Below, one piece after another: positions 5,403-55,947 of a stretch of DNA of 64,000 bases; positions within the stretch are counted from its first letter, which is position 1; every line of letters begins with the position of its first letter. A program made the position numbers and the translations under genes. The notes beneath the pieces were generated by a model, which worked only from the letters and a program-made list of their open reading frames with translations, was not told the DNA's origin and made no database searches. Source of the stretch: Rutstroemia sp. NJR-2017a BVV2 (Eukaryota > Ascomycota > Leotiomycetes > Helotiales > Rutstroemiaceae); assembly GCA_002946415.1 (NCBI GenBank), contig NJPS01000037.1, positions 124,001 through 188,000 of the forward strand, given 5' to 3'.

Positions 5403-8544
<3,142 letters not shown>

Positions 8545-14489: not shown

Positions 14490-16843
14490 ATGGAGCCGCG
14501 TGAATGGATTCGAGGCCATAAGTGTTGGCGCTTGTTATCTTACACAATCCAGCCATTCAAGCAGAGTTTAGGTTCGCTGAGCATGCTGGGACAGAGAATT
14601 CGCTGTCAGGCGTGCCAGACTATTTATCAACATCTTCGAAAAGAAATTGACGTTATGGAAAGAAATTACAGTCCCGAAAGTGCGGTAGAGTGTAGCATTG
14701 TATATTACCTTGGGCTTGAGTGGTACTTTCACCTTGACACGGTAGTTCAAAACCATTTCACTGTTCCTAAAGAATTAGTATTGACAGCACATAGATTGGC
14801 GCCGGTCCCTCCTTGCTCGAACATACGACTCTCCACCCGATCGGCGACTTCACTCAAGGTGCTAGGCTAATTAACAACTTGTGGATCTCCAGCAATGCTG
14901 TGAAAGGCTGGATGACAGAGTGTATTAGATGTCACAATCTTTGTGGAACGCCTCTTGCATGGCCTGATAGTTCAACAAAGCTATTACTTATAGATGTGGG
15001 TGCAGAGTACTTGGTGGAACAAGAAAACCCAGCATGCTATCTTGCCCTGAGCTATGTCTGGGGGGCAAAACGAGGATCTATACTTCTAACCAGTACAAAT
15101 CTAGAAGCACTCAAGCAGCCAGGCTCACTTGGATCAACTAAATGCACTCTTTCAAAGACAATACGAGATGCTATGGGTTTCACCGTAAACATTGGATATC
15201 AGTATCTGTGGATTGACCGGTTATGCATTGTTCAAGACGATGAGGTGAATAAACAGACACATATCAATCGAATGGGATCTATCTATACACATGCCGACCT
15301 GACGATCGTCGCTGCAGATGGGGATGATCCTGAATACGGTCTGCGGGGTGTAAGAGGCTGTTCACCCCGTTCAAATGCCCCCTTTACGATTGTGGAATTA
15401 GAATCCGACCAAAAGTTTGTCATACGTCCCAATTACTACTATCTTCTTGATCCTAAAACATATTTCGGTCGGGGCTGGACTTTCCAGGAGTACAATCTCT
15501 CTTCTCGTTTGGTTGTTTTCATTAACGACACTGCAATCTGGAGATGCAAGGAACACGAACGCCATGAGCAATTACTTGCCCCACTCGGCGACTTTTTCTT
15601 TCTACCTCAGACTGTGTCAGAAGTGGTTCGTCCAGGCCCGGCTCTAGATTTCTATGCACATCTTGTTCAAGAGTACAGCACGAGGAAACTAACCAATGAT
15701 GAAGACGGCTTATCAGCATTCTCCGGCATTGTTGAAGTGGTAAGCTTGCAGTTTCCCGGAGATTTTACTCAGGGTCTCCCTGAGTTTCAATTTGATACAG
15801 CCTTGCTATGGCAGCCTAATAATCCAATGAAACGACGAAAGACGCAATGGAACAACCAGCGTTACTTGCCAAGCTGGTCATGGGTTGGATGGGAAGGAGA
15901 CTTGGATCTAGATCTCTGGGAACGGGGAATCATCCACCCGATGATGGAAATGCAGGAAAGGTCACTTAAGAGCTTGGATATTCGGCCCATAACGAAATGG
16001 TACAAGAAGAAAGTCGACACAACGGATACACAGCCCATTAATAATATCTGCCATCAGTGGTACAAATTCTGTCCGTGGAGTTCTACTCGTAGACCTTTGC
16101 ACACGCCGTGGATAATATCATCCGCAATATTCAACATTGATCGGCAGCCTTATCCTCCAGAGGCCCAGTTTCCTCACTTAGATCTAGCAGGTTGGGTACG
16201 TTCTTCATTTCATTTCTTGAATGAGAAAGTGGCACCTGCGCGCCAAAGAGACGAAAGGCTACCATGCTACCGTCACATGTCAAATATGTCTCAAGCCTAT
16301 GCGTATCCTTTCCCAATCCCATCGTACAACGGAACGCGATCTTTCGAACATTTCTCGCTCCTTCAATTCAGAACAGCTCGAGCGTTTCTCTCCATAGGCT
16401 CAGCACTCATTAGGGAAGAGTCGAACAGGCCGCTGGATTGTATGTCAGTCCAGATTCTGGATAGGTCAGGAAAAATAGTTGGAGCAATGCGATTGAATTC
16501 AGTAGAGATGTCAAGTAATATTGGACAAGCCTGTGAGGTGATTGCTATATCTATGGGAAATGTTGATTTAAGAGATAGTTATGCAGAATGTTGGTTAGAG
16601 GAAATTAGCAATCGGGACGCTTTGCTCCAGATTGCGAATACTCAATGTCGCGCATCGGGAGACAGGCAGCTGGATCGTTTGACTGCAAGTGAGTTAAGGG
16701 AGTATATCGGAGTTTACGAATTTTACAATGTTTTATGGATTGAACGGGAGAAGGAAATATCATTCAGAAAGGCTCTTGGAAGGGTTTTCAAAGAGGCATG
16801 GGAATCTCACACACTCTCTGAGATTGATGTGGTATTAGGGTAA
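14490..16843 (+). CDS. HET-domain heterokaryon incompatibility protein 1
   Basis: Two exons, 14490-14741 and 14795-16843, give 766 residues. The 53-nt intron (ACG/GTAGTT ... ACATAG) brings the N-terminal cysteine-bearing segment (RCQACQTIYQHL) in frame with the HET domain. HET hallmarks in order: LALSYVWG near residue 169, a SKTIRDAM helix, YLWIDRLCIVQDD near residue 221, the IYTHADLTIVAADG strand, and RGWTFQEYNL near residue 309. HET proteins trigger cell death when genetically different hyphae fuse, and many act as NLR-like non-self sensors. The 400-residue C-terminal region has no domain I recognise. No stops interrupt it, unlike the third HET locus at 33691. The GATTAATCTCC repeat sits 110 bp upstream of the start. 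Confidence 0.88.
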
Positions 16844-18375: not shown

Positions 18376-20833
18376 ATGGCAAACCCGTTACCGCCAGATC
18401 GACGAGGCTATGGCTCACTTTTTCGAACATCCCAGGTGATGAAAGTTCCTGCCCGGTTCTTGATCCCATACCCGTCAAGCTTTCCAAATACACACGATGA
18501 CCTTCTACAGGACACATTGTGCAACATCTGTGAAACGCGTGGTAATGTGAAGAATTTTGATCCGCTTGCGATGGGTGATGGAGCACTAGAGGATGCACCT
18601 GAGACAGGTCGAACATATTTGTGGTCAATTCCAATGCTCGAAAGAAACCACAGATGCTCCCTGTGTAGACTGGTATGGAGGACCATGCAAACTTATTTCC
18701 GAGAATTATTGAATGATAGTCCGCCAAACGCGGTAATGGGGCTGAATATGAGTGTTGAGCCTGGTTGCACTAGATGGATTGAATTGATTGCGATGGTTTT
18801 CAAGAATACCTTAGACAATAAAGATCAGCATGGTAGTGGACAAGTCGTAAGTATAATACAGATTGAGGCCTCATGGCAACGACTGATAGTCAAAGTTCAT
18901 ATACGAAGACGAGCGTGTCCCACATTTCATTGTTACACAACGGGCGATGAGCGATTATTCCATTGCGGGAAAAGCGACTTTACAAGAGTGGCGCCAGAGC
19001 AAGATACTCCGGAACGATGAAATTGACTTTGGTCTGGTGAAGAGATGGATAAACCTATGCAAGCACGAACATGGCGCAGTGTGTAACAGGTCGGAAACGA
19101 GGAAGTCACCTGCTAAGAGACTTATTGATGTGGAGAAGAATTGCATTGTTGATGGTTCAAATGTCGACGAGTACTTCACATTGAGTTATGTCTGGGGTAT
19201 GGCTGCGCAGTTCATGCTTACCAAAGACGTAGTCAATGACTCAAAAACCGAAGGGTTCTTCAGCTCCATTAGTACTAAGATTCCTCAAAGCATAAGAGAT
19301 GCAATGCAAGTCTGCCGGAATATAGGAGTGCGCTACCTCTGGGTTGATGCACTTTGTATTGTCCAGAATGACGAGCAAGACAAAAACGACCAAATCGGAT
19401 TGATGGACGAAATATACGGGCAGGCCTTAGCAGTCCTAATTGTCGCTGCTGGAGACGGCGCCGAGCACGGAATACCTGGGATGGGCCAGCGAACGAGAGC
19501 ATTAATCAACTGTGAAGAGGCGGTGAATGGTAAAATACTAATGACCTCTTTAGCCTCAACGACAAACTCAGCCAAACAATCGCATTGGAACACTCGAGCT
19601 TGGACATATCAAGAGTATATCCTCGGTAACAGGCTTCTTGTCTTCACTGAGACATATGTCTTTTTCAGATGCGCAAAAACCATATTCAGAGATGGGGAAG
19701 TGCTTTCTGCCACGGAGGAGCCAACACCGGTGCCAGCTCAGTCAAGTGATGACTGGATCTCGGTGACCGCGAATGACATACCAGAAGATATGGATCCAAA
19801 GGAGGTTTGGAAGCAATACTATGATGGCTTATTGACCTTCTATCTCCGCCGTAACATGAAGTTCGACACAGACTCTCTTGCCGCCTTTTCCGGTGTTCTC
19901 AAGGTGCTTTCGAAGAGACTTGGTCCGTTCCACCATGGCCTCCCAAAGAAATATTTCGGTCGCTCATTGCTATGGAATGATGCTCACCATGGAATTTTCG
20001 AGAAACGGAAGTGCTTCCCAAGCTGGTCATGGGCCGGATGGAAGTGGAATTTCGATTTTTTCGACTCAGAGAAAGGTACAGTTGGGGCATATGGGTACGA
20101 AATGCCTAAGGAATCAGTGCCGATGAAGTTTTTCATTTTTGACAATGAAGGAAAGCTCCAGCTCTTCTTCCATGAAGGACCAGAAGTGACAGAGGAGGTT
20201 CCCAAGACTAGGCAGCAGACAAACGAGCTCATGGATTGGTTCATGATGGCCAATCAACAGGTGCAGGCATATCCTGATCTGCCCCCCGAGGAGCTCACTA
20301 TGAAACTTTTGGGCAACATGATGAGGAAACAGGCACTTGGGCAGACACAACCAACTAAAGAGAGCGATGAGCAAGAGAAGGAATGTATAGCCAGGCTGAT
20401 GGCTCAACTGGAAGCACCAGAAGATTACCAAGAGGTCAACTGCAAAAGTCAGTTAAGGCAACACACGTGTCCAGGTCATCTCGTAGCCTTTTACACAAGC
20501 GTTGCCTCGTTGAAGGTACCACTTTTAGCCAGCCAAAAGGCCGAGCAGGGGTCAACACTTGACTACGATGTGCATGGTCGTGATGGACAGCGACTTTTTA
20601 GCTGCTTCATTGACCCTGCTTGGCGGTCGAATCAACCTGAGCATCTGGAGTTTGTTGTAATTGGGGTAAAGGAAGGGGGTAAGGGAGTGGCATTGCTGCT
20701 CCTTGAAGAGATTGATGGGATTCACTATCGAGTGAATTGGAATTGGAAATTGTCGCAACACCTGGAGATCAAGGACTGGATGGCGCAGGGTCCTGTTCAG
20801 AAGCTGATCATTTGGGTTGATCATGTCGACTGA
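18376..20833 (+). CDS. HET-domain heterokaryon incompatibility protein 2
   Basis: Two exons, 18376-18846 and 18890-20833, give 804 residues. The 43-nt intron begins GTAAGT and ends CTGATAG. The N-terminal part carries paired cysteines (LCNICETRG and HRCSLCRLVW), a common zinc-like preamble of HET proteins. The HET domain follows: YFTLSYVWG near residue 253, YLWVDALCIVQNDEQ at 306, and TRAWTYQEYILG near 392. The remaining 350 residues include a charged helical stretch at about 560-640 of unknown role. It lies in the same orientation as the HET gene at 14490 but differs clearly in sequence outside the motifs, so it is not a recent duplicate. Expected role: non-self recognition and fusion-triggered cell death. 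Intact. Confidence 0.88.
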
Positions 20834-21130: not shown

Positions 21131-23310
21131 AACTATATCCCGGCTCAGAGCACGCCCCACCTTAAAGCACACCTCCAAAAATCATATTTTTTACTACAAC
21201 TACAACCTTCAACCATAGATAGAATCAGCTACGAAGCCTGTATGTAGTCAGCGCTTGCTGATTTGGATAAACAAGACCCTCCGAATTATAGTAAAGCTGC
21301 TAGAGACTATGGATTATCCTACAGTGCTGTCTCTCGTCGATACAGAGGCTTGACTGCCTCGAGAAAGGAAGCCACCTCTATATACTGTTAACGACTAACT
21401 CTAGAGTAGGAACAGGCTCTAATCTCTCAGATTAACAAGCTTTCAGCCTGCTCTATAACTCCTATAAGTTGTATCGTCAGAAACCTTGCAGAAGAGATTA
21501 TAAACGGTATTATAGGCAAGAACTGGATAGCCGATTTCGTGAAGTATTATAAAGATATCCTTCAAAGTCGGTATCTTCGCAATATCGATAATCTATGTAT
21601 TAAAGCTGATTCTATTTAATACTTCCAATATTTTTATAATCTGGTTCAAGCTATTTCGTATTGTTGTTGTCTTTTAAATAATTATTGATTACTTTGGCTA
21701 ATTCCTCCTTTTCTACTTAGCTTGCCGCTGCTGTTGAAAAATATGATATAAAGCCCCGGAATATATACAATTGGGACGAGAAAGGCTTCTTGATTGGGAT
21801 TGGAAGATCGATGAAGAGGATTATGATATGTAGTTCTTATGATCAAGGAAAAGCTACCAAAGCACTATAGGATAGATCCAGAGAATTTATAAGTTTATTA
21901 GCCAGTATCTATATAGATAGAACTGTATTACCTCCTATACTGATTTATCAAGGTGCTTCTGGAGATCTGCAAGATTCCTGGGTAAAAGATATCGAAATGG
22001 ACTTTATATACTACTTCGGAGCTTCAGCAAATAGGTGGTCAAACAATAATTTCGGCTTAATCTGGTTAATAAACGTCTTCGATCGATATTCTCGATCTAA
22101 AGCGAAAGGATTAAGATATCTTTTTATTGTTGATGGCTATTCCAGTTATATTAATATGGAGTTTATCAATAAATACGATATTCTTAAGATTATCCTTCTG
22201 ATTCTCTTACCTTATTCAACCTATCGATTACAACCTCTCGATGTAGGCTGCTTTTTGTCTCTTTCTACTCGATATAGTGTCTATCTCAATAATATAATCT
22301 CAGTAGGCGATGGGCATATTAGTATAACGAAGGGTATGTTTTATAGGGTCTTTAAGTATATATTCCAAGATGCCTTCAATAAGAAGAATATTCTTTCTGT
22401 ATTCGAAAAAACTAGTATATATCCTCAGAATTCAGCTAAAACTATCCTATAAATCGTTCCCTTATATTCTACTTCACCTCCGCTATTAGGTTCTTCGCTT
22501 TTAAAGACTCTATATTCAGCGAAAGTACTACATCGGCTCAAAAAAGAGATTTATTGTTATCCAAAAGAGACCCTTCTCGAGAAGCTCTTCAAAGCTAATT
22601 TAACTCTTGCTGTCTATCGTTCGATTTCTGATTACCGAGCTAGAGGCTTAGAAGAAGTATTAAAGCTAGAAAAGAAGAAGAGAAGCTGTGGAAAGTGATT
22701 GAACCTTGTAGGCGAATCAGATGGTAGTGCTTAGTTGTTCTCCCCCTCCCGAATTATATATGTAAGAGACTTCCAATAGCAGAAGCTGGCTTCAATTGAA
22801 GCTGAGAAGCAGGCCAAAGCTATAGAGAAGGCTAGGAAACAAGAAGAGAAGGAAAGAAAGAAGCTAGAGGCTATAGTAAAGACTATACAGAAGGAGATGG
22901 ATCGATAAATTACGAAGGAGATTAAAAGCATTCAAAAGAGAGCTCCTAAGGCTAAGAAAGCTTTAATTAAACCAGCTCAAAAGGCCACTATAGGAGCTAG
23001 AAAACCTAATATATAATCTAAAGCAGTCCCTAAGGTTTCTACGGGCTCAAAGGAGGTTATAATCGAAAAAGGAGGGGAGGGTAGTATAATACGATCAACT
23101 CGGGGCCGTAAGATTACTCTTCCATCCCGCTTCAAGCAATAGGAGTTCTGGGTATATAAATCTTTTACTCTATTCTATCTCTACATAAATCTTCAATTTT
23201 TATCGTGATATCTTATAAATTTGATTTTTAATTAATATTGAAGCAAAAGTAAGAAATGTCTAATGGGGGTGTGCTTTGAGGTGGGCTGTGCTTTGAGCCG
23301 GGATATAGTT
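21131..23310 (+). mobile_element. Pogo/Fot1-family DNA transposon, RIP-inactivated
   Basis: A 2180-bp element flanked by TA on both sides (21129-21130 and 23311-23312). Terminal inverted repeats of about 46 bp start AACTATATCCCGGCTCA at both ends and differ at about five positions, mostly C/T or G/A. Inside is a decayed transposase. There is an N-terminal Psq-like helix-turn-helix near 21243-21400 (ARDYGLSYSAVSRRY). DDE_1 domain pieces follow: YNWDEKGFLIG near 21765, LFIVDGYSSYIN near 22120 and STYRLQPLDVGCF near 22210. The tail has a coiled coil and the RGRKITLPSRF motif near 23100. Almost every in-frame stop is TAG or TAA where the family has Gln, which points to CAG/CAA mutation by RIP. 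Length and layout match full-length Fot1-like elements, so this is a whole but dead copy. Confidence 0.88.
21243..23150 (+). pseudogene. Dead pogo/Fot1 transposase
   Basis: The transposase reading frame of the element above is broken by many TAG/TAA stops and small frame losses. The longest open piece (21997-22452) carries the second catalytic Asp (FIVDG) and the QPLDVG block. An intact enzyme would bind the inverted repeats and cut and paste into TA sites; this copy cannot. Confidence 0.85.
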
Positions 23311-33288: not shown

Positions 33289-33690
33289 GGGAGATGAGGT
33301 TGTTTGCAAATTCTTTGCTTGTGCAGTCAGGATATGATACCTATATAGTGTGCACATGAAACAAGGGCCTTTCGGGGGGAGTGGGTGAATGTTAGGGGTT
33401 GCTTGTAAGGGTAACAGTAGATTGTAGTAACGTCGCAGCAGTCTAATAGGGCAATTTTAGGTAAAAACTAATTACTGCTGTTCTCCCTTTTCCTTCTTTT
33501 CAATAGACCTTTGAAGCTAAATATTAACCCCGCCTTTCGGCCGATTAATCTCCGCTTCCCCACTTCCTTCGAGTGATTAAGATCAACTCTTTATAGATTT
33601 CTTCTTTAGAGTTGATTCTTTTATATCAACTAGTCTGTTTCTCGTCTATTCTTTTCTTCCACTTAAGTAAGTATATCTTAGATACTAAGA
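33289..33690. other. Intergenic; GATTAATCTCC repeat copy 3
   Basis: ccgattaatctccgcttcccc at about 33539-33560 matches the leader of the HET gene at 14490. It lies 130 bp before the dead HET gene below. Confidence 0.5.
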
Positions 33691-35389
33691 ATGGCGACAA
33701 GTTCTCTCATGGAATTAAATGTAGCGAAGGCTGCAAATGATAACGATGAAGCAAGCCGATATCCCTTCTGCCGAGCGCTGCCTGAGTTTGCTATTACGAA
33801 TAGACTAAATATACCGCCGATAAATATCTCTATCGATCTTATAGACAAGTCGGAAACAACTCCAGAGGACGTTACAAAGTCTAGTAATTACGAACTTTTT
33901 CTTGTCGTCCAGCCCCTATACTATGTCTGGTCTGGAAAAGATCAGTTTCCAACTATAGGTCGTCGTTATAGCAAGTACAAAAAGGATATTTATATTAAAA
34001 AGGTATTTCTGCTTACCGATCCAATAACTCCAATATGTATTTGTCCTAAGTCAAGATACAAGATTAGGTATCACTAACACGATCATAAATAACCTAGATA
34101 TATTCTCTTCGCTTCCTGAAAGATATATGCTGATATATAAAGATCCTTACAGTCCTCTCGTAATCAAAAGGGTCCAGTAATGGATTTCGAATTGTAATGA
34201 AAATTATCCTACCTATTATATTAACGAATCTCCTCTATTACCCATCCGCATTCTCGACATTGGTTGCCGTGATTCTACTTATATTGTGAAATTAATAGAA
34301 TCTACCAAGGATCAGCGAGGTATATATATTACACTAAGTTATTACTGGGGCAGATCCAATATATTCATAACTACCCGAGATAACTTCATACAGATACAGA
34401 ACAGATTCTCCCTAAGTATCGCCCCAGTAATATTTCGAGAAGCAATTTGGTTTTCCCAAATACTAGGAATACATTATTTATAGATCAACTCTCTATATAT
34501 TATCCAGGGGGATAAGAAAGACTAGGAAATAGAAGCTTCTAGAATAGTACAAGTCTACCAAGGCGCCGTTCTTACACTATCAGTATCATACACCTCAGCT
34601 GACTCAGAAGGTTTCCTGAAGCACCGGCTATTACTTTATTCAACAGTTAAGATAACCTCATCCTCGGGTCAGAGCATAGAGATATATCTCGCTGACCAGT
34701 CTCGGCTCATTGGGAATCGATCGTAGACAGGCCCAGAATATAACGTTATACCACCCCTGGATACTCGTAGATGGTATCTGCAAAAGTATTATCTCTCTAA
34801 TCGATAGCTCAAATTCTTGAATACCAAGATTCTCTAGTCATATCGAGATATGGACTTCGATGAAGGAACATCAGACCGGCTAGATAGTGCACTAACTATT
34901 CGAGGAACTGACAAATACTTCATATATCTTTTTCGAGGTAGCCAAAAGCTAAGATATTGTACTCTTTCGCTGCTTCCTACTCGGGGATTATTTCACAACT
35001 TCTGGATACAGAATTCTGGCAGTAATCCATATGGCCAAGTTGACGACACCTGCATCAAGCTCGAGGCCCCGCTCATTTCGTTGCAAGGAAATAGAAATAC
35101 AATCTGTATTCCAGATATAGTGACCTCAGGAGGACGAACGGAGGTAACCTTCGACTCGGAAGAAGAAAACCAAGGAGATAGCTTAAGTGCCCTCTTTTTA
35201 CTCCGTCGTCTACTGTATAATGTTACCTCTGATAACGAAGAAGTCATACTCTTCGGACTGATCGTATATCCTGTCTCAAGCCCTTCGCAGAATCATAGGC
35301 ATCTAGAGGTTGAGGTTACAACTGGGTTCTATAATGGAGTTGGGTTTATTCAAATGTGGACTTCTCTCAATAAGGAAGGTAAATATTAG
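33691..35389 (+). pseudogene. Third HET-domain gene, RIP-inactivated
   Basis: HET signatures survive in order: GIYITLSYYWG near 34320, a LGIHYL-stop-INSLYIIQGDKKD block near 34460-34520, and VYQGAVLTLSVSY near 34555. A C-terminal open piece runs from 34850 to 35389. The stops after HYL and KD sit where HET proteins have Trp (TGG to TAG), the change expected if RIP mutated CCA on the other strand. The 5' piece starts ATG at 33691 and is open to 34075. It cannot make a full protein. It differs from the two intact HET genes, so it is a separate family member. Confidence 0.8.
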
Positions 35390-36745: not shown

Positions 36746-38077
36746 TCAAACTTGTACCTCAAAATAAGTCTTCAACTCGGGAAAAACCTTTGTTGCACGC
36801 TCAACAAAACATTCTAGGTACTGTCTCCACGACATCTTACAATCGCTGCATAGTTCAACACCACCAAACTGGTGAGAAACCTCTGCGCCGTACGACTCAC
36901 GATATCTGCATGTATCACAAACCCCGTCACCGCCTATCTCAAGGAACTCGGCAAGGCCGGGGAACATGAGTTCTTCACTGCGAGCGACGAGAGTCTTGTA
37001 TCGTGGTGTGTTACGAATCGATCTTTTGTTGGCATCTACTCGATTCCAGAGCTTGAAGTTCTTCCGGGTTTGATCAACGACTCTCTCGGTCTCTGACTTG
37101 CCGATTGTCAAATTCTCTTCAACGAATCGGTAACGACGCATCATCATGTGTATAGGACCACCAAAAAAGCGCACAAAATTGATAACATTGACTAGCTTAG
37201 GATTTCGTGCCCAGGCGGCATCAAGGGCCCATAGTATCTCGCGACACTCGCTGTAGGCTTTGATACGCAAGTCCTCCGGCATATAGGCAAAGGTGCTGTT
37301 TGTCTCACCCTCAGCACGATGTTTGTAGAAAGCTACTGCATCATAAAGAGTGTCTCCAATCTCGGTCAGAATTTCGAATTGTTCTTCAGTGTACCAGATG
37401 TCGTCGAGGTCATTGCAAGCTAGAGCTGAGGCAATCGTGAACCTGGCCAGCGCGTCACAGTCCCGCATGCGGAACCAGTGTCTTGGTGATTGCACAAGTG
37501 CGTTCACATAGCGTCTGAATAGCTCGCCATCGCGTCTATCACTCGCCTTGTCTGCTGTGATGAGCAGAAAAGTCTTGTACTCTCGTGCCATTTCTTTATT
37601 TCCTGGGGTCCCCTCAAACAGAGCTGCAAGAACAGCATCCAGATCGTAACCAAGAATGTTGTTACTGGCAGTGACATCTACCATCTCGCCTCGAAACTCG
37701 GCGATCACACCGATGATAATAGTGCGCATGAATGCAACGTATCTATCCCAGTTTGTATAGTTAGGAATGACACATCGGGTATATTCCCAAGCGCATGCAA
37801 AGATCTCTGCCTTCAATTCGGCAGGGAGGTCGATAGATTTCAAATCGTTCGCAATATCAGGAGGATAGTACCAGGTGTCCCTATGCTCCTTGATATGGGT
37901 GGCGGCAGTCATTGCTGCTGCCGCTGTTTGATCCGAGTCTTTGGCGTGAATAGGTTGATCTTGGCCCCAATGCTTGTTACTGTCGATGCCTGGGCCTTTG
38001 CTTGTTTCGCTCTTTGTCCGTTCTGACATTTGAACGAACTTATCATCGATAAGTGTCTGGGTGATAACTTCCTGCAT
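36746..38077 (-). CDS. aba3: Alpha-ionylideneethane synthase (ABA cluster sesquiterpene synthase)
   Basis: A single exon of 443 residues from the ATG at 38077. The sequence is recognisable as the Botrytis BcABA3 family, for example KEHRDTWYYPPDIANDL, AWEYTRCVIPNYTNWDRYV and MPEDLRIKAYSECREILWA. Known role: converting farnesyl diphosphate to 2Z,4E-alpha-ionylideneethane, the C15 skeleton of fungal abscisic acid. It does so by a mechanism unlike class I terpene synthases, and indeed no standard DDxxD...NSE pair is seen. An acidic stretch NDLDDIW lies near residue 218. The C-terminus has CDTC and CSDC about 25 residues apart, a possible zinc knuckle. It reads away from aba1; the 1.9-kb gap between them is a likely shared promoter. 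Family length is matched. Intact. Confidence 0.93.
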   Translation of the reverse strand: MQEVITQTLIDDKFVQMSERTKSETSKGPGIDSNKHWGQDQPIHAKDSDQTAAAAMTAATHIKEHRDTWYYPPDIANDLKSIDLPAELKAEIFACAWEYTRCVIPNYTNWDRYVAFMRTIIIGVIAEFRGEMVDVTASNNILGYDLDAVLAALFEGTPGNKEMAREYKTFLLITADKASDRRDGELFRRYVNALVQSPRHWFRMRDCDALARFTIASALACNDLDDIWYTEEQFEILTEIGDTLYDAVAFYKHRAEGETNSTFAYMPEDLRIKAYSECREILWALDAAWARNPKLVNVINFVRFFGGPIHMMMRRYRFVEENLTIGKSETERVVDQTRKNFKLWNRVDANKRSIRNTPRYKTLVARSEELMFPGLAEFLEIGGDGVCDTCRYRESYGAEVSHQFGGVELCSDCKMSWRQYLECFVERATKVFPELKTYFEVQV

Positions 38078-40005
38078 GTTGATGAGCTACAGGCTAAAGT
38101 AACAATGAAGTTTTTGTATGGAGATTGAATAAAAGCTGAAGTTGATGTTTGTTTGCTCGATAGAAGAGCACCGTCATCGAGTATATAAGCACTTCGGGGG
38201 ACGTAGATGCATCATGAAGCTCAAGCTGACTCTCCTAACTCCGATCGCCTGAACCAACTGAGCAGGACGCCGGAGCTAGTCTATTGCCGATCAGGAATTA
38301 CAGTTGCCCCGAATCAGTATTTTCTGAAATTTACGACTAATCGATTCATGTACAGGCTGACTCTTGCAAGAGCTCTTCCGCTCCATGCACCCTGTCGCAC
38401 TGGCTATTGCCCCTCTCGTCGAAGAATCGTGGCATCGCACTATGGTAGCATTCCAATATGACGATAGAGCTCTGCCTAAGGCCCTAGGCCTAGATCATGA
38501 TTTACGGACTTAACGCATTCTACATATTTGTGTGCTAGCTGATCATTCCCATGGATGTTAACGCTCGGGGATATTCTCAACTAGTCTACCACGTATTTCG
38601 AACGATACATAACAGATAAGGGGCGCCACTTAAGGGTCATTTTCGGGTCATTCTCGGTCAAGAACATGCATTGACTTGCTCATTATCGGAACCCCAGACT
38701 CCGCATAAGATTAAGAGATCGTCCACATGTATGAAGAGATGCCAGAAAGTATGATATTAAGACCCTGAAACTGATATGGGAACCATGCATCCGATCGATC
38801 GAGGAACGAATAGATATACTCCTCGCCGTCTGGGTACTGCGATCGTTTTGCTCGCCAGTTCTGATGGATCTACATATGTATCTACGTATCTGTATCTGCG
38901 TATATAAACCTTAACCTTCCGTATTAGGCCGTTCAACGCTCCTAGAATTCTGTCGTCTAGATATCCACCAGTCGGAGTTCTTGGCTATCAGTTGATGAAG
39001 TAGTTGTTATCATTCATGCCTGTACTTGGCGAGACGCTGAGAGAATCTCAAGGTGGCAGTGAGCTCACAAACTTTCACTAGCGGACTGCGGATGTAACTC
39101 ACTGTCACAGCAGCATAGGATCACTTGTAAAGTATAGGTATATATAGATACCCAATTAGGGAACTTGGTTCAGGAGAGGAGACCCGTAAAGTGCCTACTT
39201 TCTCCCCTTCGATAGAGGATTCAACCGATATATACCAAGCACAATCTTGTTCCAAATGATCTGGTTAGTGCCACGATTATGTAGTCAGGGTTACTATACT
39301 CATTGACTATTGTCCGTTACTTCGTAACGTTCCTAGACACTATCTACCTGTAGAGCTTATGTTGGAAGCTGGTGAGCAGTAGTCTTGTCCCACTTAGCGT
39401 GAGTGGGTTCTTGCATCGCCTTTCTCATTTGCGGACCAATCGGCAGAGATATAGGTCGGATGCATGGTATCACATACACCTTTTTCGGCGCATCGCAGCC
39501 CCCTCATGCTCGGCGCCTGAAACTTTATTTAGACCTCCGGGCGTAACCGATCAGAAAGCTTAAAATTTACCCGGGCGAACAACCCTCGATCTTTCGTAAT
39601 GAGGAGCTTGAGATCATGCTCCCCCACGAACAAAAGTTAAACACTTAGGTAGTAAGCCGCATTAAAGTTTGACTTTTGTCCTGGGGAGGGGAGAGTACAG
39701 AGAAGGCCCAACTAATCATCTGCACTGCGCGATAAAGCTTGATGTGGAAGTCATTGAAACCAGGATATCTCTTTCGACGTTATATGCACGCGGTTTTTAT
39801 TTATCGCCACTTGCGGATTTACATTTGGAAAAGAGTTTTGCACACATAAGCCGCCTTGCACTTCATATTACAATTTCTTGATTCTTCACGAACGCACAAT
39901 TCCGCTTTACATTTGATATATTCTCCTACAAGTTCTTTTTACATGTTTTAGGTCTTAACAAGATACAACACAGCGAGCGACTAAACTTCCTACAAAGAAA
40001 AAGAC
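38078..40005. promoter_or_regulatory. Divergent aba3/aba1 intergenic region
   Basis: 1.9 kb with no supported gene. On the minus strand a TATA-like cttatatac at 38181-38189 lies about 105 bp before the aba3 ATG. The aba1 side ends in an A/C-rich leader. It probably carries the control sites for both genes; no binding site was identified. Confidence 0.5.
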
Positions 40006-41780
40006 ATGGTTACTTCAGTATTGAACCTCGGCTCCTTCGTTTGCTTGTTGAGTCTGGTGTCTATAGTCCTCTGGTATATTATCAGTGCAGTCTTAGCTTG
40101 GTATCCTCTCCGAAAGGTACCTGCGCCATCCTTTCTCGCTACATTCTCGTATCTTTGGCTTGCCAAAACAACTTATAGCGGGAAACAATACTGGGTCCAC
40201 CGTGATTTACACAAAAAATACGGCCCGCTGGTGCGAATTGGACCAACAGATATCATTACAGATGACCCTGAAATCATCAAGAAGATATCCTCAGCACGCA
40301 GCTCCCATCGTCGAGGAGACTGGTACTTGACCGGTCGATTCAATCCATATTATGACAACATGTTCACGATGCTGGAGCCGGGCCCTCACGCCAAGGCAAA
40401 AGCAAGAACTGCAGCAGCCTACAGCGGACGCGATATGCCTGACTTGGAAGTCGGTGTTAATGCTCAGCTTCAAACTCTCATCGGCTTACTGCGCTCCAAA
40501 TACGCATCGAATGCTATCAAGCTGCATCAGCCGTTGCTTGATCTTGGTGAAGTGTCGTGCTTCTTTACGATGGATGTGATTACTCGGCTTGCCTTCGGTC
40601 AGGAGTTTGGCTACCTCAAAGAAGAAACAGATCAATACAACTTCCTCCGCGGGGTACGCGATCTCTGGCCACGTATGTCAACATCAGCGGATACCCCCTG
40701 GATTAGAAAGTTCCTCTTTTCTCCCCCTTTTCTCAAAGTTCTTGGCCCAAAGCCTACTGATAAAACGGGGTTCGGTGCTTTAATGGCGTAAGAGAGAGCC
40801 CTTCGTTCGATTCCAACTTTACTAATAACACATAGGGTAGCAGAACATCATGTGGGTAAAAGATTTGCACCAGATGCAAAGGAAAAGCAAGATATGCTCG
40901 TAAGTATTCTGTTCACGTAAAAATTGAATTCAGTTAACCTAGTGCTAGGGTTCATTCATCCGACACGGGTTGAATCAGCAAGAGTGCGAAGTCGAAGGCC
41001 TCTTCATGATTGTTGCCGGAACGGAAAGCACTGCATCCGCTATTCGGTCTACATTGATACATATAATGACTTGTCCTCGTGTATATCAGAAGCTTAAGGC
41101 TGAGATCAACCTGGCCGTTGAAGAAGGAAAAGTTTCAAGTCCCATTAAACTCGAAGAGGCGAAGTCACTTTCATTTCTCCAGGTTAGTTTTTCTTTGCAT
41201 CCGGACTTGGCAATACTGTCTTACTCTTCGCTCCTATTATGAAAGGCGCTTACTTAGAACCTAGGCTGTCATTTACGAAGGTATCCGAATGCGTCCTCCC
41301 CTTTTAGGACTCTTCCCTAAAATTGTCCCGAATGGTGGGGAAGAATTTCATGGAATGTTCATACCAGCCGGTACAGCAATTTGCATGAATACCTCCTCTC
41401 TACTGAGATCTACAGCTCTTTTTGGAGATGATGCCGACGTTTATAGACCAGAACGTTTCATGGAGCTCGAAAAATCGAAGAGGAGTGAGATGGAACGGAA
41501 TGTGGAACTCGCCTTTGGTTATGGTCAATATATGTGTGTTGGCAAAACGGTCGCTTTCATGGAGCTGAACAAATCCATCTTCGAGGTTCGTAGCTGACCA
41601 TATTGTTTGACGAATTTCGAGCTAACTTGAATCTTTCTTCAGATACTGCGAGCATTTGACCTCCAATTGTTGAGCCCCGCCAAACCATGTGACGTGTTCA
41701 GCTATGGGATCTTTCTTGAGTCAAACATGCTTGTTAAAGTTACTGAAAGTGAGGGAGCAGAACCGAAGATAGGTCAATAG
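40006..41780 (+). CDS. aba1: Cytochrome P450 of the ABA cluster (first oxidation steps)
   Basis: Five exons, 40006-40787, 40836-40899, 40949-41182, 41265-41585 and 41643-41780, give 512 residues. An N-terminal membrane anchor at about residues 8-30 is followed by a Pro-rich hinge (LRKVPAPSFLA). The I-helix has AGTEST, the K-helix YEGIR (E-x-x-R), then YRPERF, and the haem loop FGYGQYMCVG with ligand Cys at about residue 451. By position and sequence this corresponds to BcABA1, which in Botrytis oxidises alpha-ionylideneethane towards alpha-ionylideneacetic acid in the endoplasmic reticulum, fed by a P450 reductase encoded elsewhere. All splice sites keep frame; the GTTCGT donor of intron 4 is a weak match. 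Intact. Confidence 0.9.
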
Positions 41781-43034
41781 GAGATCTATGGAATCTCAAT
41801 CAAATGTTCATAGATGTATGGTTTAGCTATCTCAGATTGGCATGATGATGCAAATAGAAGTTCATTACCGTTATTGTTGTAAACATCTCAACCTCTCTCT
41901 AGCAAAACTTCCGCATATTCGACGTTAGGCGGCGCCTATTGTGAAATTACACCATCTACTCCTTTGCTTCGGGGAGTAACCAACGACTGCGTGTTTGATT
42001 CTAGGAATCAATCATTATGTGCAGATTGCGTAAGCCTCACTTACTTCATTTATCTAACTTTTTGTGCCGATTAAAACATTCTAGCCCGAGGTATTTGCCA
42101 TCGGCACAGATACACCTTAGCTTACGTACCATATTGCTCCACATGTTCTTGCAGATCTTGACGCGATTGCAACGGGCCGTCCAGAGATGTCGATCTCAGA
42201 AATGGACACGGTTATGAAAATAAAGAAGGGTTCATTCCGGAACTCGTCATCGCCCCTTCGCCCCTGCGCGGCTGCGCCCCCGTTTTTAGTCACGTTCGCG
42301 TATAGCATGCACAATCGAGCACCGAGAGATCAACCAGCTTCCTATTAGAGAAGGACTCGACAGATAGCCGAGCTTTTAGTTTCACTGTAACCGAGAAGGT
42401 AGGATTGTAATTTATACTTTCGAGATGGCACGCAAATAAAAAGCTATATCGGAATAACAAGGTATCATATCGTAAATGATCAACTGGTGTGTTGTCATTG
42501 CAGTATTAATGCGCGCAGAATCACCCCCGTATTAAGTTTGAGGTAAGTATAAATTTCGTATCGATAGGCAATTCTGAAAGCGTGTTGTGCGGCCCCCTGA
42601 AAGAAGGTTATTTAGTGGAACACTTACAGGGTGATTACGAGGTAGAGTACTTACCCCAGCTATGGATGTAGCAACATGGAAATAACTTAATCGTTTCGGA
42701 ATCACGAACCATCATAACCCTTATGGAGTCTTGTAAGTCAAGAGTTTTCACAAGACTAGTAGAGAAAGTGACGCATATCGTTGCCCGCGAAGATTTCCAA
42801 GATCTGAAGTAGATAGCGGAGTTAACTTTCCCTCCAACTCAATCGTGGTCCCTGTTTCTGACGTTGAATTGAAGCTTATTGTTTCCTCTAAGCATATACA
42901 TCTCAAAATTCTTCCTCTCCATTCCTTCGGTGATTATGCCCATTGTTCAAAACTCTCATGATAAGAACGTACTCCTCAGATCAATCATTATTCATAGTTA
43001 CTCTCGTGAAAGTTATCTTTCCTGAAAGGACATC
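41781..43034. other. Intergenic between aba1 and aba2
   Basis: 1.25 kb without a supported gene; it includes the aba2 promoter. No transposon ends noticed. Confidence 0.4.
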
Positions 43035-44842
43035 ATGCTGCTTGACATCAAAGACCTGTCTGAAAAATACATGATGCTCCTCGACATTAAAGATCTTTCG
43101 TCACTTAAAACAACTGCTGCGGTTCTAGTGAGTCTATCCTTCGTATTAAAGAGCAGACAAGTTCTCAACGTCATCAGATCACAGTTGCTGTTATTGCACA
43201 AGTCCTTTGGAGACTTTTCTTTCACCCCCTCAGTGCCTTTCCAGGGCCGTGGTTCAATCGCATATCCGAAATACCAGGCTCATGGGTTATTGCGACTGGG
43301 AAACAGCACTCGTACTACCGGCAGCTTCATGACAAATATGGTGAGTAACTACTCCTGTACCTAATTCACGCTCCTAAAGAAGAAATTCATGCTAAAACAA
43401 ATTCAGGTCCAGTTGTGAGAGTTGCTCCAAATGAGCTCAGTTTTATTGGTGATCGTGCGTGGGATGACATATATGGGATTCAGGTGGGCGATGTCGAATC
43501 ATGACTGAATGTATAGCGATTGATGAAAGGCAGAAAAACGGTCCCAATTTCGAGAAAAGTCCGATATTCATAGGAGCGGTTTCCCCTCTGGACGGCCAGA
43601 CAGGAATTAGCTTGGCACCAAATGAAGTTCACACTCGACAACGTAGAGCTTTGGCACATGTCTTCACCAACACAGCATTATTGCAACAACAAGAGATTAT
43701 GCGAAGCCATGTCGATAAACTCGTTGGACAGATGAAGAAAATGAGTGCGGAGAATCGACCAGTTAACTTCTCGAATTGGTGTAAGTGATACTTCGTTAAA
43801 TCGCATGCCGATAGTTTTAACTAACAATGGAGGCATAGACACCTACACAACCTTTGATATGATGGGTGATCTCTGCTTCGCAGAGCCATTCGGATGTCTA
43901 GATCAAGGCGGGGCCACAGAGTGGTCCACATCGGTTATCAATGTCTTTAAATCTGCCGCATGGGACCAGTCCATACGTAGAGTAGCTGGCATAAACACGT
44001 GGCTTCAGAAGTTGATGGTGAAGCTTCTTATTCCATCCGAAGCTGCAACGTGGAGAAAAGTCCATTTCCTAAATTCACGCGAGAAAACACTGCGGCGTCT
44101 TGCAGATGGAGATCGTGAGCATAAGGACTTCATCTACCATATTCTAAAGAACAAGGAGGCAAAGAACTCATTGTCGCAAACGGAAATCATTCTTAACATG
44201 GTATTGCTCATAAGTGCCGGGACAGAAACCACCGCGAGTCTACTCACGGGTTGGACCTATTTCATTTGTACTCACCCCAAAGTTTATAAACGCCTTACAG
44301 ACGAAATCAGGGGGAGATTCAACTCCGAGCTGGATATCACTTGGGAAACGGTCAAAGATTTGCCCTACCTCCATGCAACACTCAGCGAGGCACTTCGTTT
44401 ATACTCGCCAGCGCCTGCGAATCAGCAGCGAGTTGTTCCTCCAGGAGGCTCTGTCATTGATGGACACTTCGTTCCAGGTAAAACCACCGTTGCTGTAGCA
44501 CCTTGGGCTGCCGTAAACTCATCGTTGAACTTCAAGTACCCTCAAGAATTTATTCCGGAACGCTGGCTTGGTGATGAGAGGTTTGTAAATGACAAACTCA
44601 ATGCTTCTCAGCCGTTCAGTCTTGGACCTAGAGGATGTATAGGAAAGAACTTGTCCTTTTTCGAAATGAGGCTTATCACGTCCCGTTTACTCTGGGCATT
44701 TGACATGTCACTAGTGAAAACTGGAGAACATGGAGAAACCAATAAACTATGGGATATGAACGGTGCGGGCAAGTACATGAAAGTCTATCAGACATGGAAT
44801 AAGCCCGATTTGTGGGTCTTGCTAAAAGAGGTTCCTAGATAG
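43035..44842 (+). CDS. aba2: Cytochrome P450 of the ABA cluster (ring hydroxylation)
   Basis: Five exons, 43035-43127, 43178-43340, 43407-43483, 43534-43780 and 43839-44842, give 527 residues from the first ATG. The ATG at 43074 would give 514. A membrane anchor (ITVAVIAQVLWRLFF) is followed by HPLSAFPGPW, the hinge typical of pisatin-demethylase-like P450s. Then come SAGTETT (I-helix), SEALR (E-x-x-R), PERWL, and the haem loop FSLGPRGCIG with Cys near residue 460. It corresponds to BcABA2, which adds ring hydroxyls to alpha-ionylideneacetic acid. Oddity: the first nine codons are repeated 39 bp downstream with only synonymous changes, so either ATG could be used. Intact. Confidence 0.9.
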
Positions 44843-45230
44843 GAGGGTCCGGTTGATCTGATGTTCAAGCAGGAATTTTGGGCTTTCCAATGTCTTTCTT
44901 TGTCCTATTTGGTTTGAGTTGCTTTGGTAGTTTAGTTTGATATCTTGATAGTTCCGAAGTATTGCTTGTTCAAACATAACCTTTTATTAGTACCGCTTCA
45001 ACTTGCCTTTCTTCGTTTTCTATGTGTCGAGATTGGCGATGTTTGGCTGTAGCAGAACCGATAACTTCTTGAAAATTACCCTTGTTGCTACCGAAACAGA
45101 ATGTGATATTGTTTGGATTCCGTAAGGAAGCGGGGTTCCTACGGAGGACAAGAAACTATCCTGCCGGAACCTATCCAGTGGTAGAGGACTCAAGTCTACC
45201 TGTCCATTTGCACAAGCTAATCAAGGAAAT

Positions 45231-45240
45231 TTATATAAAA
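45231..45240 (+). promoter_or_regulatory. TATA-like box of aba4
   Basis: ttatataaaa lies about 80 bp before the aba4 ATG, a normal spacing for a fungal TATA element. Confidence 0.5.
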
Positions 45241-45316
45241 CATCATATTCCACATCTTTCAGAACAAAGTAGACATTCCTCAAAGCTAATACCTTATCTC
45301 GCTATATCATAGTGTC

Positions 45317-46158
45317 ATGTCCTGTCAACAATTCACGAACAAAGTTATCGCCCTCACAGGCTCAGCTTCGGGCATCGGCCTAGAAACGGCAAGGTTGCTT
45401 GCAAGTCGTGGAGCGAGATTGTCGCTTGCCGATATCCAAGAAGAAAAACTGAAGGATATCCAAGCGCAGCTAGAATCAGAGTACCATTTTGACGTGATTA
45501 TCACCAAGGTGGACGTAAGGAAGTTTGAAGAGGTGGAAGCATGGATTAGAAAGACCATAGACCACTTCGGAAGGTTAGATGGTTCAGCCAATCTGGCTGG
45601 TGTCGCTCCGAAGTCCATTGGACTGAAAAGTATCGTTGAGCAAGATTTGAACGAGTGGGAGTTTGTCTTGGGAGTCAATTTGACCGGGACAATGAACAGT
45701 TTAAAGGCTCAGCTGAAAGTCATGGCTAACAACGGATCAATCGTGAACGCTTCCTCTATTCGGGGACTATCCGGGGCAGCAAAAAACGCCTCTTATTCGT
45801 CAGCTAAGCATGGGATCATTGGGCTCACAAGAACGGCAGCAAAGGAAGTAGGCGGGCGAGGAATTAGAGTGAACGCAATTTGCCCGTAAGTGATCGGTGT
45901 TCTATCTTATCGTGGCCATGGTGTTTTTGGGTTCTAAAGACTAGCTTTAGGGGCCGCATCTCTACACCAATGCTAAGCGCCGCGGAAGACTCGATCGGTA
46001 TTCACCTACAACCTGGAAGTGCAAATTACCCACCAATTGCACTGGGCAGAGACGGAGAAGCTAAGGAGGTTGCTCAGCTGGTCGCATTTTTGTTGAGTGA
46101 TGAGTCGACGTACATTTCAGGAGCTGATGTCAGCATTGATGGCGGATGGAGATGTTAA
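45317..46158 (+). CDS. aba4: Short-chain dehydrogenase/reductase of the ABA cluster
   Basis: Two exons, 45317-45885 and 45951-46158, give 258 residues. Classical SDR layout: the cofactor loop TGSASGIG near residue 14, a NLAG strand in place of the usual NNAG, catalytic Ser-147 (NASS), Tyr-160 and Lys-164 (YSSAK), and a C-terminal ISGADVSIDGGW. The spacing of 13 residues between Ser and Tyr is standard. It corresponds to BcABA4, which oxidises the 4' hydroxyl of 1',4'-dihydroxy-alpha-ionylideneacetic acid to the ketone, giving abscisic acid. It lies 470 bp after aba2 in the same direction with its own TATA-like box. Intact, soluble, probably NAD(P)-dependent. Confidence 0.92.
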
Positions 46159-53486: not shown

Positions 53487-54476
53487 TTAGTCAATGGCCA
53501 TCACTATCTTCCCATTTGCCTCATTAGCCTCCATGACTCTATGCGCGTTCCTAATTTCCTCTTCTCCAAACTGAAAAACCCTGGCTGGCTCAGCCTTGAA
53601 CTTCTTATCTGTAACCATCGTTACAATATCCTTCAAAGGAACGTCCGATAGAGGAAATCCAGGAGTACCAAATGAAAAACTCCCGAAGAAACTAAAATGT
53701 ACCCCACTAGCCATTTGTAACAATGGGTTGAAATCTGAGATCGGCGCCAATCCTCCAAGAAATCCAGCTAGACATACCCTCCCGCCTCGGCGAACCATTT
53801 TGAGAGTATCCAAGATCGTGCTGTTCCCAATCAAATCTAAGATGGCGTCGAATTTTTCCGAAACTTGTTGCGATAAGTTCGGACCTTCGAGCTTGACTCG
53901 GTCTGCACCCAGCGCCTTCAAAGATGCAAAACGTTCTTCTTTCCTCGTAGTCGCCACAACCTTCACTCCCTTCTCCACCGCCAAGTTCAGCGCCGCTTGA
54001 CCAAATGCCGATGTAGCTCCTCTGATTAGAAGACTCTGACCCGTATCCACTTCCAAATTCCTAAACAAACACGTCCAAGCCGTAGCGTACGACTCCGGAA
54101 TAACCGCTAACTGAGCCCACTCCAGTCCCGCAGCTGAAGGTCCCAAACAAACGACATTCTCAAATTTGGCTTTAGTATACTCGGCATAGCTGCCATTAAT
54201 AGTACGGCCTAGTCCTCCCATTAATGAAGCTACTGGTGTTCCTTCCTTCAATTCTCCACCAGGACAAGAGGCGACGATCCCGACGCATTCGATCCCACTG
54301 ACTGGCATCCATTCTGCCCATTCGCCTTTGCGCATGTGAAGTTCGGCGTGATTGAGGCCGAAGGCTTTGATCTTTATAAGAACTTCGCCAAGGTCGGGTT
54401 TCGGGATTGGGATTTCCTTGAGGACTAGGCATTCTGGACCTCCGAATTTTGAGATTATGATCGCTTTCATATTCAT
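53487..54476 (-). CDS. Zinc-free medium-chain oxidoreductase (quinone oxidoreductase-like)
   Basis: A single exon of about 329 residues. The best start is the ATG at 54476 or 54470 (MNMKAIIISKFGGPECL); the frame is open further up but the added residues are not family-like. The N-terminal GroES-like domain has FGLNHAELHMRKG. The Rossmann domain has RGATSAFGQAALNLA and VVATTRKEERFASLKALGAD, which bind NADPH. No structural zinc cysteines, as in the quinone oxidoreductase branch of the MDR superfamily. It ends EANGKIVMAID, the standard last strand. Expected to reduce quinones or enals in the cytosol; the exact substrate is unknown. Confidence 0.88.
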   Translation of the reverse strand: MNMKAIIISKFGGPECLVLKEIPIPKPDLGEVLIKIKAFGLNHAELHMRKGEWAEWMPVSGIECVGIVASCPGGELKEGTPVASLMGGLGRTINGSYAEYTKAKFENVVCLGPSAAGLEWAQLAVIPESYATAWTCLFRNLEVDTGQSLLIRGATSAFGQAALNLAVEKGVKVVATTRKEERFASLKALGADRVKLEGPNLSQQVSEKFDAILDLIGNSTILDTLKMVRRGGRVCLAGFLGGLAPISDFNPLLQMASGVHFSFFGSFSFGTPGFPLSDVPLKDIVTMVTDKKFKAEPARVFQFGEEEIRNAHRVMEANEANGKIVMAID

Positions 54477-55947
54477 GGCAGCGTTTACCTTCGTTATGGT
54501 ATGAATTTGGAGTTGGTATATTCGGATAAGTTTTGGATATTCTGGAAAATATTGCAGTCCATATTTAGGATGGGATCGAGGCTTCAAATATTCCACAGGA
54601 TAAATTGCACAAGGAAACTGTTCTCCTCACAAGATATGTATGTAAGCAGCCTTTGTACAGCCGAAGTATCTTTGTCGGCGAATCAAATGAGCGGCAAGGA
54701 AACACGCACTGCAGCCACTATTGTAAACATAAACACAGGTTATCGCAGGCTGCGAATCTAATCCATATTTGGAGATACCTACTAGTAGTTTGTCAGCATA
54801 CTATGTGCTCGCCTTGGGGACATCCATTCACGATGGGCATGGCTATCAATGAAGCATTTGTCATGGTTAATGACTCTGATTACCTGATGAATAGGCTATG
54901 CATAATAATGAAAACCTTGCGTGGGCTGGGGGCATAATTTTGAATGGTTGGCAGTGTACACCTTTCAGTGTCAGGGCCAGGCTATTTGACAAGATCTATG
55001 CTAAGATCTTTGCTTTACGGAACTATCCTTCCATATATTGACGGGCTGAGGGAGAGTGAGGATCCACGGCCGCCTTGATGAACTCATCGCAGGCATTTCG
55101 AAGACGATCAGGTGTTGCGACCTTGCCTCTTCCTATGTCGTTCCAAACACGCATGTCGTTGAAAATAACCTTACATTATGTCAGGAGAGCAACCGCTTTT
55201 GCTTTCGAATGCGGTCACTGAACCGTCCTTCTAGAGCAGAGTAACAGAGTAACTCTTACACTTCCGAGCTTCAATGTCAAGACTCGGACGATCAAGGCTC
55301 GTGTGATATTTCGTTTAAACAGGTACGACGATTCCCGGAATAGGCTAGCTGAAGCGCAGGCTGCTAGAAATCCGTCAAGCGGGGAAGTGGTTATCGAGTT
55401 ACTATTATCAAGCAATCGACGGGAAAAATACATGATGTGTGCAAAAAAAAGGTATGGGTGCTGGACTGGTTCTCCCGCTTTTTCTTACGAAAGGCGTTTC
55501 TGGGCATCCGGCTTCTCCGGGTTATAGAAGGATCTTCATCAGCTCCGCAGCAACGTCCCTGACTTCAAAGATAATGGTATTCAGGAGCAGCACGTTGTAG
55601 GTAGAACTCGATGTAGAAGTCAAAGAGCGGCATGCATGACTCTGTTCTTGGCAGCACCGTTTCCCATGCAGAATAGTAGTCAAGCTTGCGCTATAAAGGG
55701 AAGGGCATGGGAGAATAAACATACAAAGACATGGCTAGTCGAAAAGGAACAAAATTCTGGACATACAATGGATGGATAAAGTTGTCGTAGGCTTATGGAT
55801 TGTTGTATTGAAGTAGATATACTAGCCTCACGCCTCCCCTTACTAATTCCATCCGCAAGGAGCTTTATCTTAGTGCATAAGCTCCCGATAAAGACCATCC
55901 ATCATCTTGCAGGGCTAGAACATCATAACCATCAACAAATAACAACA
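54477..55947. other. Intergenic, nothing recognised
   Basis: About 1.5 kb between divergent genes. Small frames only. The last part is the Atg29 leader. Confidence 0.4.

What the first reader, a model, noticed from the sequence alone, without database searches (positions are those of the whole stretch)
36746..46158. Complete abscisic acid biosynthesis cluster (aba3, aba1, aba2, aba4)
The four genes match, in family and motifs, the Botrytis ABA pathway: an unusual sesquiterpene synthase, two P450s and an SDR. All four have intact frames and catalytic residues. Fungal ABA is made from farnesyl diphosphate and can alter plant stress signalling, so this strain probably can make a plant hormone. 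Order here is aba3 leftwards, then aba1, aba2 and aba4 rightwards, within 9.4 kb.
Basis: partly seen in the sequence, partly recalled or inferred. Interest (0 to 1): 0.85.

Follow-up and report, generated by a model that had tools for sequence, protein, structure and literature searches.

The report
Fungal abscisic acid gene cluster
This fungus, apparently a relative of grass-infecting Rutstroemia fungi, carries what looks like an intact copy of the four-gene set that the grey mould Botrytis uses to make the plant hormone abscisic acid, laid out in the same order; it is a known kind of cluster in a further fungal lineage.

Summary
The finding is real and its reading holds. Window 36746-46158 carries four intact genes in the Botrytis cinerea order and orientation: aba3 leftwards, then aba1, aba2, aba4 rightwards. 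ABA3 is 86% identical to Bcaba3 over its full length and 93% to PDB 8zad 'Aba 3 protein' over 376 residues. ABA2 is 92% identical over 527 residues to a Botryotinia calthae protein. Intron counts equal those of bcaba1-4 in strains TB-3-H8 and T4; the older B05.10 models differ. Four published bcaba4 oligonucleotides match at 89 of 95 bases. ABA1 was not aligned to BcABA1; it rests on position, exon count, length and 16 of 21 bases at its start, while its reverse primer found no good ungapped match. A pectin lyase gene lies 20.7 kb beyond aba4; Botrytis has one at the cluster's right border, a hint of one ancestral locus. Activity is inferred from orthology; expression and ABA production were not tested.

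The parts
36746..38077 (-). aba3: alpha-ionylideneethane synthase (noncanonical sesquiterpene synthase), intronless, 443 aa
   Evidence: 86% id/100% coverage to Bcaba3; 351 of 376 aligned residues identical to PDB 8zad; 131/131 columns invariant among 13 chosen relatives kept; bcaba3 primers match 17/20 at the start and 18/20 inside the 3' end
40006..41780 (+). aba1: cytochrome P450, 5 exons (40006-40787, 40836-40899, 40949-41182, 41265-41585, 41643-41780), 512 aa; proposed to oxidise C1 of alpha-ionylideneethane
   Evidence: PF00067 E 1.6e-44; haem motif FGYGQYMCVG, ExxR; bcaba1 has 4 introns, 509 aa in TB-3-H8 and T4; forward cDNA primer 16/21 at the start codon, reverse primer best 11/19 in the coding sequence. 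No alignment to BcABA1 was possible
43035..44842 (+). aba2: cytochrome P450, 5 exons (43035-43127, 43178-43340, 43407-43483, 43534-43780, 43839-44842), 527 aa; proposed C1'/C4' hydroxylase
   Evidence: 92% id over 527/527 to Botryotinia calthae P0121; bcaba2 527 aa, 4 introns in TB-3-H8; cDNA primers 17/20 and 20/20 at the two ends
45317..46158 (+). aba4: short-chain dehydrogenase/reductase, 2 exons (45317-45885, 45951-46158), 258 aa; proposed final C4' alcohol oxidation
   Evidence: bcaba4 is 842 bp, 258 aa, 1 intron: same here; four published bcaba4 oligos match 22/24, 25/26, 20/22, 22/23; 62% id over 221 aa to the SDR half of P0124 of Colletotrichum tanaceti
38078..40005 (.). divergent intergenic (promoter) region between aba3 and aba1, 1928 bp
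   Evidence: coordinates of the flanking start codons
6646..8544 (+). GH20 beta-N-acetylhexosaminidase used as placement and synteny marker (not part of the pathway)
   Evidence: PF00728; 97% id to Rutstroemia sp. NJR-2017a WRK4, contig length 182770, the contig length listed also for WRK4's ABA2 orthologue P0122

Best explanation
It is an intact orthologue of the B. cinerea abscisic acid cluster in a Rutstroemiaceae-like leotiomycete. ABA3 cyclises farnesyl diphosphate (via allofarnesene) to alpha-ionylideneethane; [quoted passage not shown] the SDR ABA4 oxidises the C4' alcohol to give ABA. Shown here: order, orientation, intact frames and motifs, conserved synthase residues, and gene identity by alignment for ABA2 and ABA3. 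Inferred: ABA1's identity and, from the Botrytis work, each catalytic step. Not shown: expression or ABA production in this strain.
For: ABA3 86% to Bcaba3 over 100%, grouped with Botrytis ABA3 at SH-aLRT 100 in a tree of 39; 93.4% over 376 residues to PDB 8zad 'Aba 3 protein'. ABA2 92% over 527/527. Exon counts and lengths match TB-3-H8 in PMC4227169 Table 1. cDNA primers mark the same ends in aba2 and aba4 and the same start in aba3; internal aba4 qPCR oligos match 20/22 and 22/23. Gene order aba3-aba1-aba2-aba4 (PMC4227169 abstract and passages). Orientation: the arms for deleting the whole cluster lie downstream of the stop codons of bcaba3 and bcaba4 (PMC12804166, passage), so bcaba3 points outwards as here. 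Sufficiency of the four Botrytis genes: passages in PMC9920419 and PMC13288456.
Against: No BcABA1 sequence was retrieved: none of the 120 hits listed (of 1840) is closer to ABA1 than to ABA2, the bcaba1 reverse primer matches at best 11 of 19 bases in the coding sequence, and the forward primer has a better chance site (17/21) elsewhere in the window. No expression or metabolite data. The solid-culture study of Rutstroemia capillus-albis lists five compounds, ABA not among them (PMC6100615, abstract and passages). B05.10 with the four genes makes no ABA in axenic culture.
Confidence: 0.92

Rival explanations
1. The cluster makes a related cyclofarnesane (for example the 1',4'-trans-diol of ABA or a deoxy-ABA) rather than ABA itself, because one tailoring enzyme, above all the unaligned ABA1, differs in specificity.
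For: ABA1 was assigned indirectly; its I-helix reads AGTEST, not the form that I recall as usual; ABA3 relatives occur in fungi and bacteria far from Botrytis, for example Mycena and actinobacteria.
Against: ABA2 and ABA3 are 92% and 86% identical to Botryotinia/Botrytis proteins, and four bcaba4 oligos match at 89 of 95 bases, so a different product is unlikely.
Confidence: 0.05
2. The genes are intact but silent: a remnant without a role in this fungus.
For: B05.10 carries the four genes and is reported to make no ABA in axenic culture; the Rutstroemia culture study lists no ABA; fragments that look to me like a decayed HET gene lie left of aba3, though Pfam found no domain in them.
Against: All four frames and splice sites and 131/131 conserved ABA3 columns are kept at 8% (ABA2) and 14% (ABA3) amino-acid difference from Botryotinia/Botrytis, which points to continued selection. 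dN/dS was not computed. In B05.10 the ABA genes are tabulated as expressed in infected leaves.
Confidence: 0.2
3. The cluster reached this lineage by horizontal transfer from a Botrytis-like fungus rather than by descent.
For: Transfer of ABA clusters among fungi is proposed in PMC10482981 (passages); the cluster is absent in S. sclerotiorum, lacks three genes in B. fabae and its key gene was found in four of nine further Botrytis species. BcStc5, another terpene synthase, is stated to be 74-85% identical to Rutstroemia and Sclerotinia homologues, against 86-92% here.
Against: The window's ABA3 groups with a metagenome sequence (SH-aLRT 85) beside B. cinerea, not within it (one Botrytis row only). 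A pectin lyase gene lies 20.7 kb right of aba4, as bcpl1 lies at the right border in Botrytis; 0.005 PF00544 loci expected that near by chance, one of three border families tried.
Confidence: 0.2

Closest known systems
bcaba1-4 abscisic acid cluster of Botrytis cinerea
   Same: Four genes, order, orientation; intron counts and near-equal protein lengths of TB-3-H8; ABA3 86% identical to the B05.10 protein; ABA2 92% to Botryotinia calthae
   Different: Rutstroemiaceae-like host; no ferulic esterase gene of two families searched on this contig; pectin lyase 20.7 kb away instead of at the border; 1928 bp between aba3 and aba1, where B05.10 has a 10.9 kb retrotransposon insertion
Rutstroemia sp. 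NJR-2017a WRK4 (uncharacterised)
   Different: P0122 is apparently mis-spliced in its N-terminal part (79% overall); the rest of its cluster was not seen
ABA-BOT clusters of Colletotrichum tofieldiae and Diaporthe helianthi (PMC10482981, passages)
   Same: ABA synthase and P450 genes clustered
   Different: No sesquiterpene cyclase (PF19086) match in this window; the nearest on the contig is about 146 kb from aba3
PDB 8zac (alpha-ionylideneethane synthase aba3) and 8zad/8zae (Aba 3 protein)
   Same: Homologous over the full query (8zac) or residues 67-443 (8zad)
   Different: 25 of 376 aligned residues differ from 8zad; the source organism of 8zad was not shown

Membership tests
BcABA-type abscisic acid cluster | ABA3-type alpha-ionylideneethane synthase | tested here: met
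   by sequence; activity not tested
BcABA-type abscisic acid cluster | P450 orthologous to BcABA2 | tested here: met
   92% over 527/527 to Botryotinia calthae P0121; bcaba2 cDNA primers 17/20 and 20/20
BcABA-type abscisic acid cluster | P450 orthologous to BcABA1 | tested here: inconclusive
   P450 by Pfam, position, 4 introns, 512 vs 509 aa, start primer 16/21, reverse primer best 11/19; no BcABA1 alignment
BcABA-type abscisic acid cluster | SDR orthologous to BcABA4 | tested here: met
   842 bp, 258 aa, 1 intron as bcaba4; four oligos 89/95 bases; a full alignment to BcABA4 was not made
BcABA-type abscisic acid cluster | Gene order aba3-aba1-aba2-aba4 with aba3 divergent | tested here: met
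BcABA-type abscisic acid cluster | Produces ABA | not testable with these tools
   needs LC-MS and deletion mutants
ABA-BOT fused cluster | A canonical sesquiterpene cyclase gene (as in botrydial clusters; that its family is PF19086 is recalled) beside the ABA genes | tested here: not met
   of 7 PF19086 matches in the genome none lies in the window; the nearest on the contig is C31:14417; other botrydial genes were not sought

The most novel reading that the evidence does not exclude
Grass-infecting Rutstroemiaceae (dollar spot, 'bleach blonde' disease) make abscisic acid in planta through this cluster, and fungal ABA helps to cause the bleaching and premature senescence; the cluster was already in the common ancestor of Rutstroemiaceae and Sclerotiniaceae, near a pectin lyase gene, and was lost in Sclerotinia and in some Botrytis.
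Probability: 0.2. Interest if true: 0.65.

Novelty: new member of a known kind. Interest (0 to 1): 0.4.

Why it matters
It extends a complete hormone pathway known from Botrytis to what appears to be a second leotiomycete family, one that contains turf and grass pathogens whose disease signs (bleaching, early senescence) are of a kind that ABA can promote (recalled). It names genes to delete and a metabolite to measure. The nearby pectin lyase gives a synteny handle on whether ABA clusters are inherited or transferred.

Tried and rejected
One combined P450 profile (ABA2 plus ABA1, alignment A2) was searched to reach both families with one of three protein searches; all 120 listed hits are closer to ABA2, so ABA1 stayed without a direct relative. 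NCBIfam has no match for ABA3 at E <= 0.01. Ferulic esterase families PF07519 and PF10503 have 18 and 3 matches in the genome, none on contig C31; that these are the right families for bcorf2 is my guess. 5.8S rRNA was not found (39 of 1390 candidates scored), so no ITS identification. No telomere-type repeat in the window. A search with the alcohol dehydrogenase at 53487-54626 led nowhere. Searches of the paper library for Clarireedia or Rutstroemia with abscisic acid (5 and 9 papers) listed none that, by title and start of abstract, reports an ABA cluster there; I read passages of only some of them. PMC13288456 names Rutstroemia once, for BcStc5; PMC10482981 names neither genus in its main text; PMC9849252 on Clarireedia genomes holds 'abscisic' 0 times in its main text; PMC5987419 on Monilinia holds it only in a reference. 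Nothing else was searched for print. No structure was predicted, because solved homologues exist.
Full report
What is there. The window is part of a 43.4 Mb assembly of 79 contigs (C31:124001-188000). Stop-to-stop frames and hand-built splice models give four genes in 36746-46158: aba3 (minus, no intron, 443 aa), aba1 (plus, 4 introns, 512 aa), aba2 (plus, 4 introns, 527 aa) and aba4 (plus, 1 intron, 258 aa). All 9 introns are GT-AG; aba1, aba2 and aba4 each hold a single, terminal stop, and aba3 is open over 443 codons. aba1 had 8 open splice combinations in the regions tried and aba2 48; I chose those with the most usual splice signals, and the aba2 protein then aligns over all 527 residues, at 92%, to Botryotinia calthae P0121. 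For aba4 two acceptors stay open, giving 260 or 258 aa; the 258 aa form equals the published length. aba3 has one match in the genome.

Identity of each gene. ABA3: the best named hit is Bcaba3 of B. cinerea B05.10, 86% over 100%; a metagenome protein is 90% (413 proteins at E <= 0.001, 120 listed). All 131 columns invariant in 13 chosen relatives are kept. In a quick tree of the window and 38 of the 120 listed proteins, the window, the metagenome protein and Botrytis form one group at SH-aLRT 100. Solved structures of the family exist: 8zac is 'Alpha-ionylideneethane synthase aba3' and 8zad/8zae 'Aba 3 protein'; 351 of 376 aligned residues equal 8zad. ABA3 has no DDxxD or NSE motif, in line with the statement that BcABA3 is not homologous to usual sesquiterpene synthases (PMC9920419 and PMC13288456, passages). 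ABA2: as above. ABA4: four published bcaba4 oligonucleotides match at 22/24, 25/26, 20/22 and 22/23 bases (oligos), and a Colletotrichum tanaceti P450-SDR model (P0124) is 71% to ABA2 and 62% to ABA4. ABA1: P450 by Pfam with haem, ExxR and PERF motifs, in the bcaba1 place with its exon count. The start primer matches 16 of 21 bases at the start codon, though one site elsewhere in the window matches 17; the end primer matches at best 11 of 19 in the coding sequence. I could not align ABA1 to BcABA1. The closest other P450 stretch in this genome is 40% identical to it.

Same cluster, same layout. PMC4227169 (abstract, passages and Tables 1-2) gives bcaba3, bcaba1, bcaba2, bcaba4 in this order. 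For strain TB-3-H8 it lists 0, 4, 4 and 1 introns and 440, 509, 527 and 258 aa (T4: 440, 509, 528, 258). The B05.10 models in the same table differ (bcaba1 493 aa; bcaba2 443 aa, 3 introns; bcaba3 422 aa, 1 intron). The paper also gives only 88%, 87% and 83% identity of ABA3, ABA1 and ABA2 between TB-3-H8 and B05.10, so the 86% seen here against B05.10 is near the range it reports within B. cinerea; part of that may come from the differing models. The deletion arms described in PMC12804166 (passage) lie downstream of the bcaba3 and bcaba4 stop codons, so bcaba3 is divergent there too. I judge this far beyond chance; no probability was computed for the layout.

Which organism. The hexosaminidase at 6646-8544 is 97% identical to Rutstroemia sp. 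NJR-2017a WRK4; the other 119 listed hits are at most 82%. Its apparently mis-spliced start repeats a wrong-frame peptide of this window over about 40 residues. Rutstroemia and Clarireedia are Rutstroemiaceae. That WRK4 belongs to the cheatgrass fungus collected at Whiterocks (PMC6100615, passages) is my inference from the isolate code. The assembly size resembles C. jacksonii HRI11, 43.35 Mbp (PMC9849252, passages), which is weak evidence. I do not name the species.

Mechanism. By the Botrytis work (passages in PMC9920419; PMC13288456): ABA3 makes alpha-ionylideneethane from farnesyl diphosphate via beta-farnesene and allofarnesene; [quoted passage not shown] ABA4 oxidises the alcohol to ABA; the four genes suffice in A. 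oryzae and S. cerevisiae. That ABA1 makes the C1 acid is recalled. For this strain every catalytic step is inferred from orthology.

Origin. The cluster is absent from S. sclerotiorum (PMC3158057), three of its genes are missing in B. fabae (PMC10971195), and its key gene Bcaba4 was found in four of nine further Botrytis species (PMC6417074); transfer between fungi is proposed in PMC10482981; passages only. Here, a pectin lyase gene (PDB best hits pectin lyase B and A; PF00544) has its Pfam match 20.7 kb to the right of aba4, just outside the window (G000:C31:190896, in L017). Botrytis has bcpl1, similar to pectin lyase A, at the right border. The genome has eight PF00544 matches on five contigs; counted as five loci, 0.005 are expected within that distance. 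This was one of three border families tried, and that it is the orthologue of bcpl1 was not tested. The left Botrytis border, a ferulic esterase-like gene, has no counterpart on C31 in the two families searched. BcStc5, another terpene synthase, is stated to be 74-85% identical to Rutstroemia and Sclerotinia homologues; against that, 86-92% here is on the high side, which leaves transfer open.

Limits. Whether the fungus makes ABA is open: B05.10 does not in axenic culture, though its ABA genes are tabulated as expressed in infected leaves, and the five compounds listed from R. capillus-albis do not include ABA. The premature senescence in that disease makes the question worth asking, no more.

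Noticed in passing
L002, L003, L005, L006 (bacterial loci): Three of eight bacterial loci with an ABA3 relative (L002, L003, L005) carry a P450-like frame directly upstream on the same strand; L006 has P450-like frames on the opposite strand (phmmer with ABA1/ABA2, E <= 1e-5, frames of 100 aa or more). Bacterial ABA3 relatives as such are known (PMC9920419).
   Followed up: partly
ABA3, window 36746-38077, residues 387-413: A C-terminal CxxC...CxxC pair is invariant in all 14 aligned fungal and actinobacterial ABA3 proteins; it looks like a metal site, checkable in 8zac.
   Followed up: no
tree: Six actinobacterial ABA3 proteins form one group (SH-aLRT 97) beside the fungus Thozetella (99) among fungal rows (quick tree, midpoint root): a possible transfer between kingdoms.
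   Followed up: no
14795-16843, 18890-20833, L017:5825-6727: HET-domain genes lie on both sides of the region; fragments that look like a decayed HET gene lie at 33682-35389, though Pfam found no domain there.
   Followed up: no
21871-22452: Frame with a DDE_1 (transposase-type) domain.
   Followed up: no
G000 contigs C25 and C74; C9:125487-127207 and C31:359837-361557: Hits with the same scores at identical or mirrored coordinates suggest duplicated contigs or segments in the assembly.
   Followed up: no
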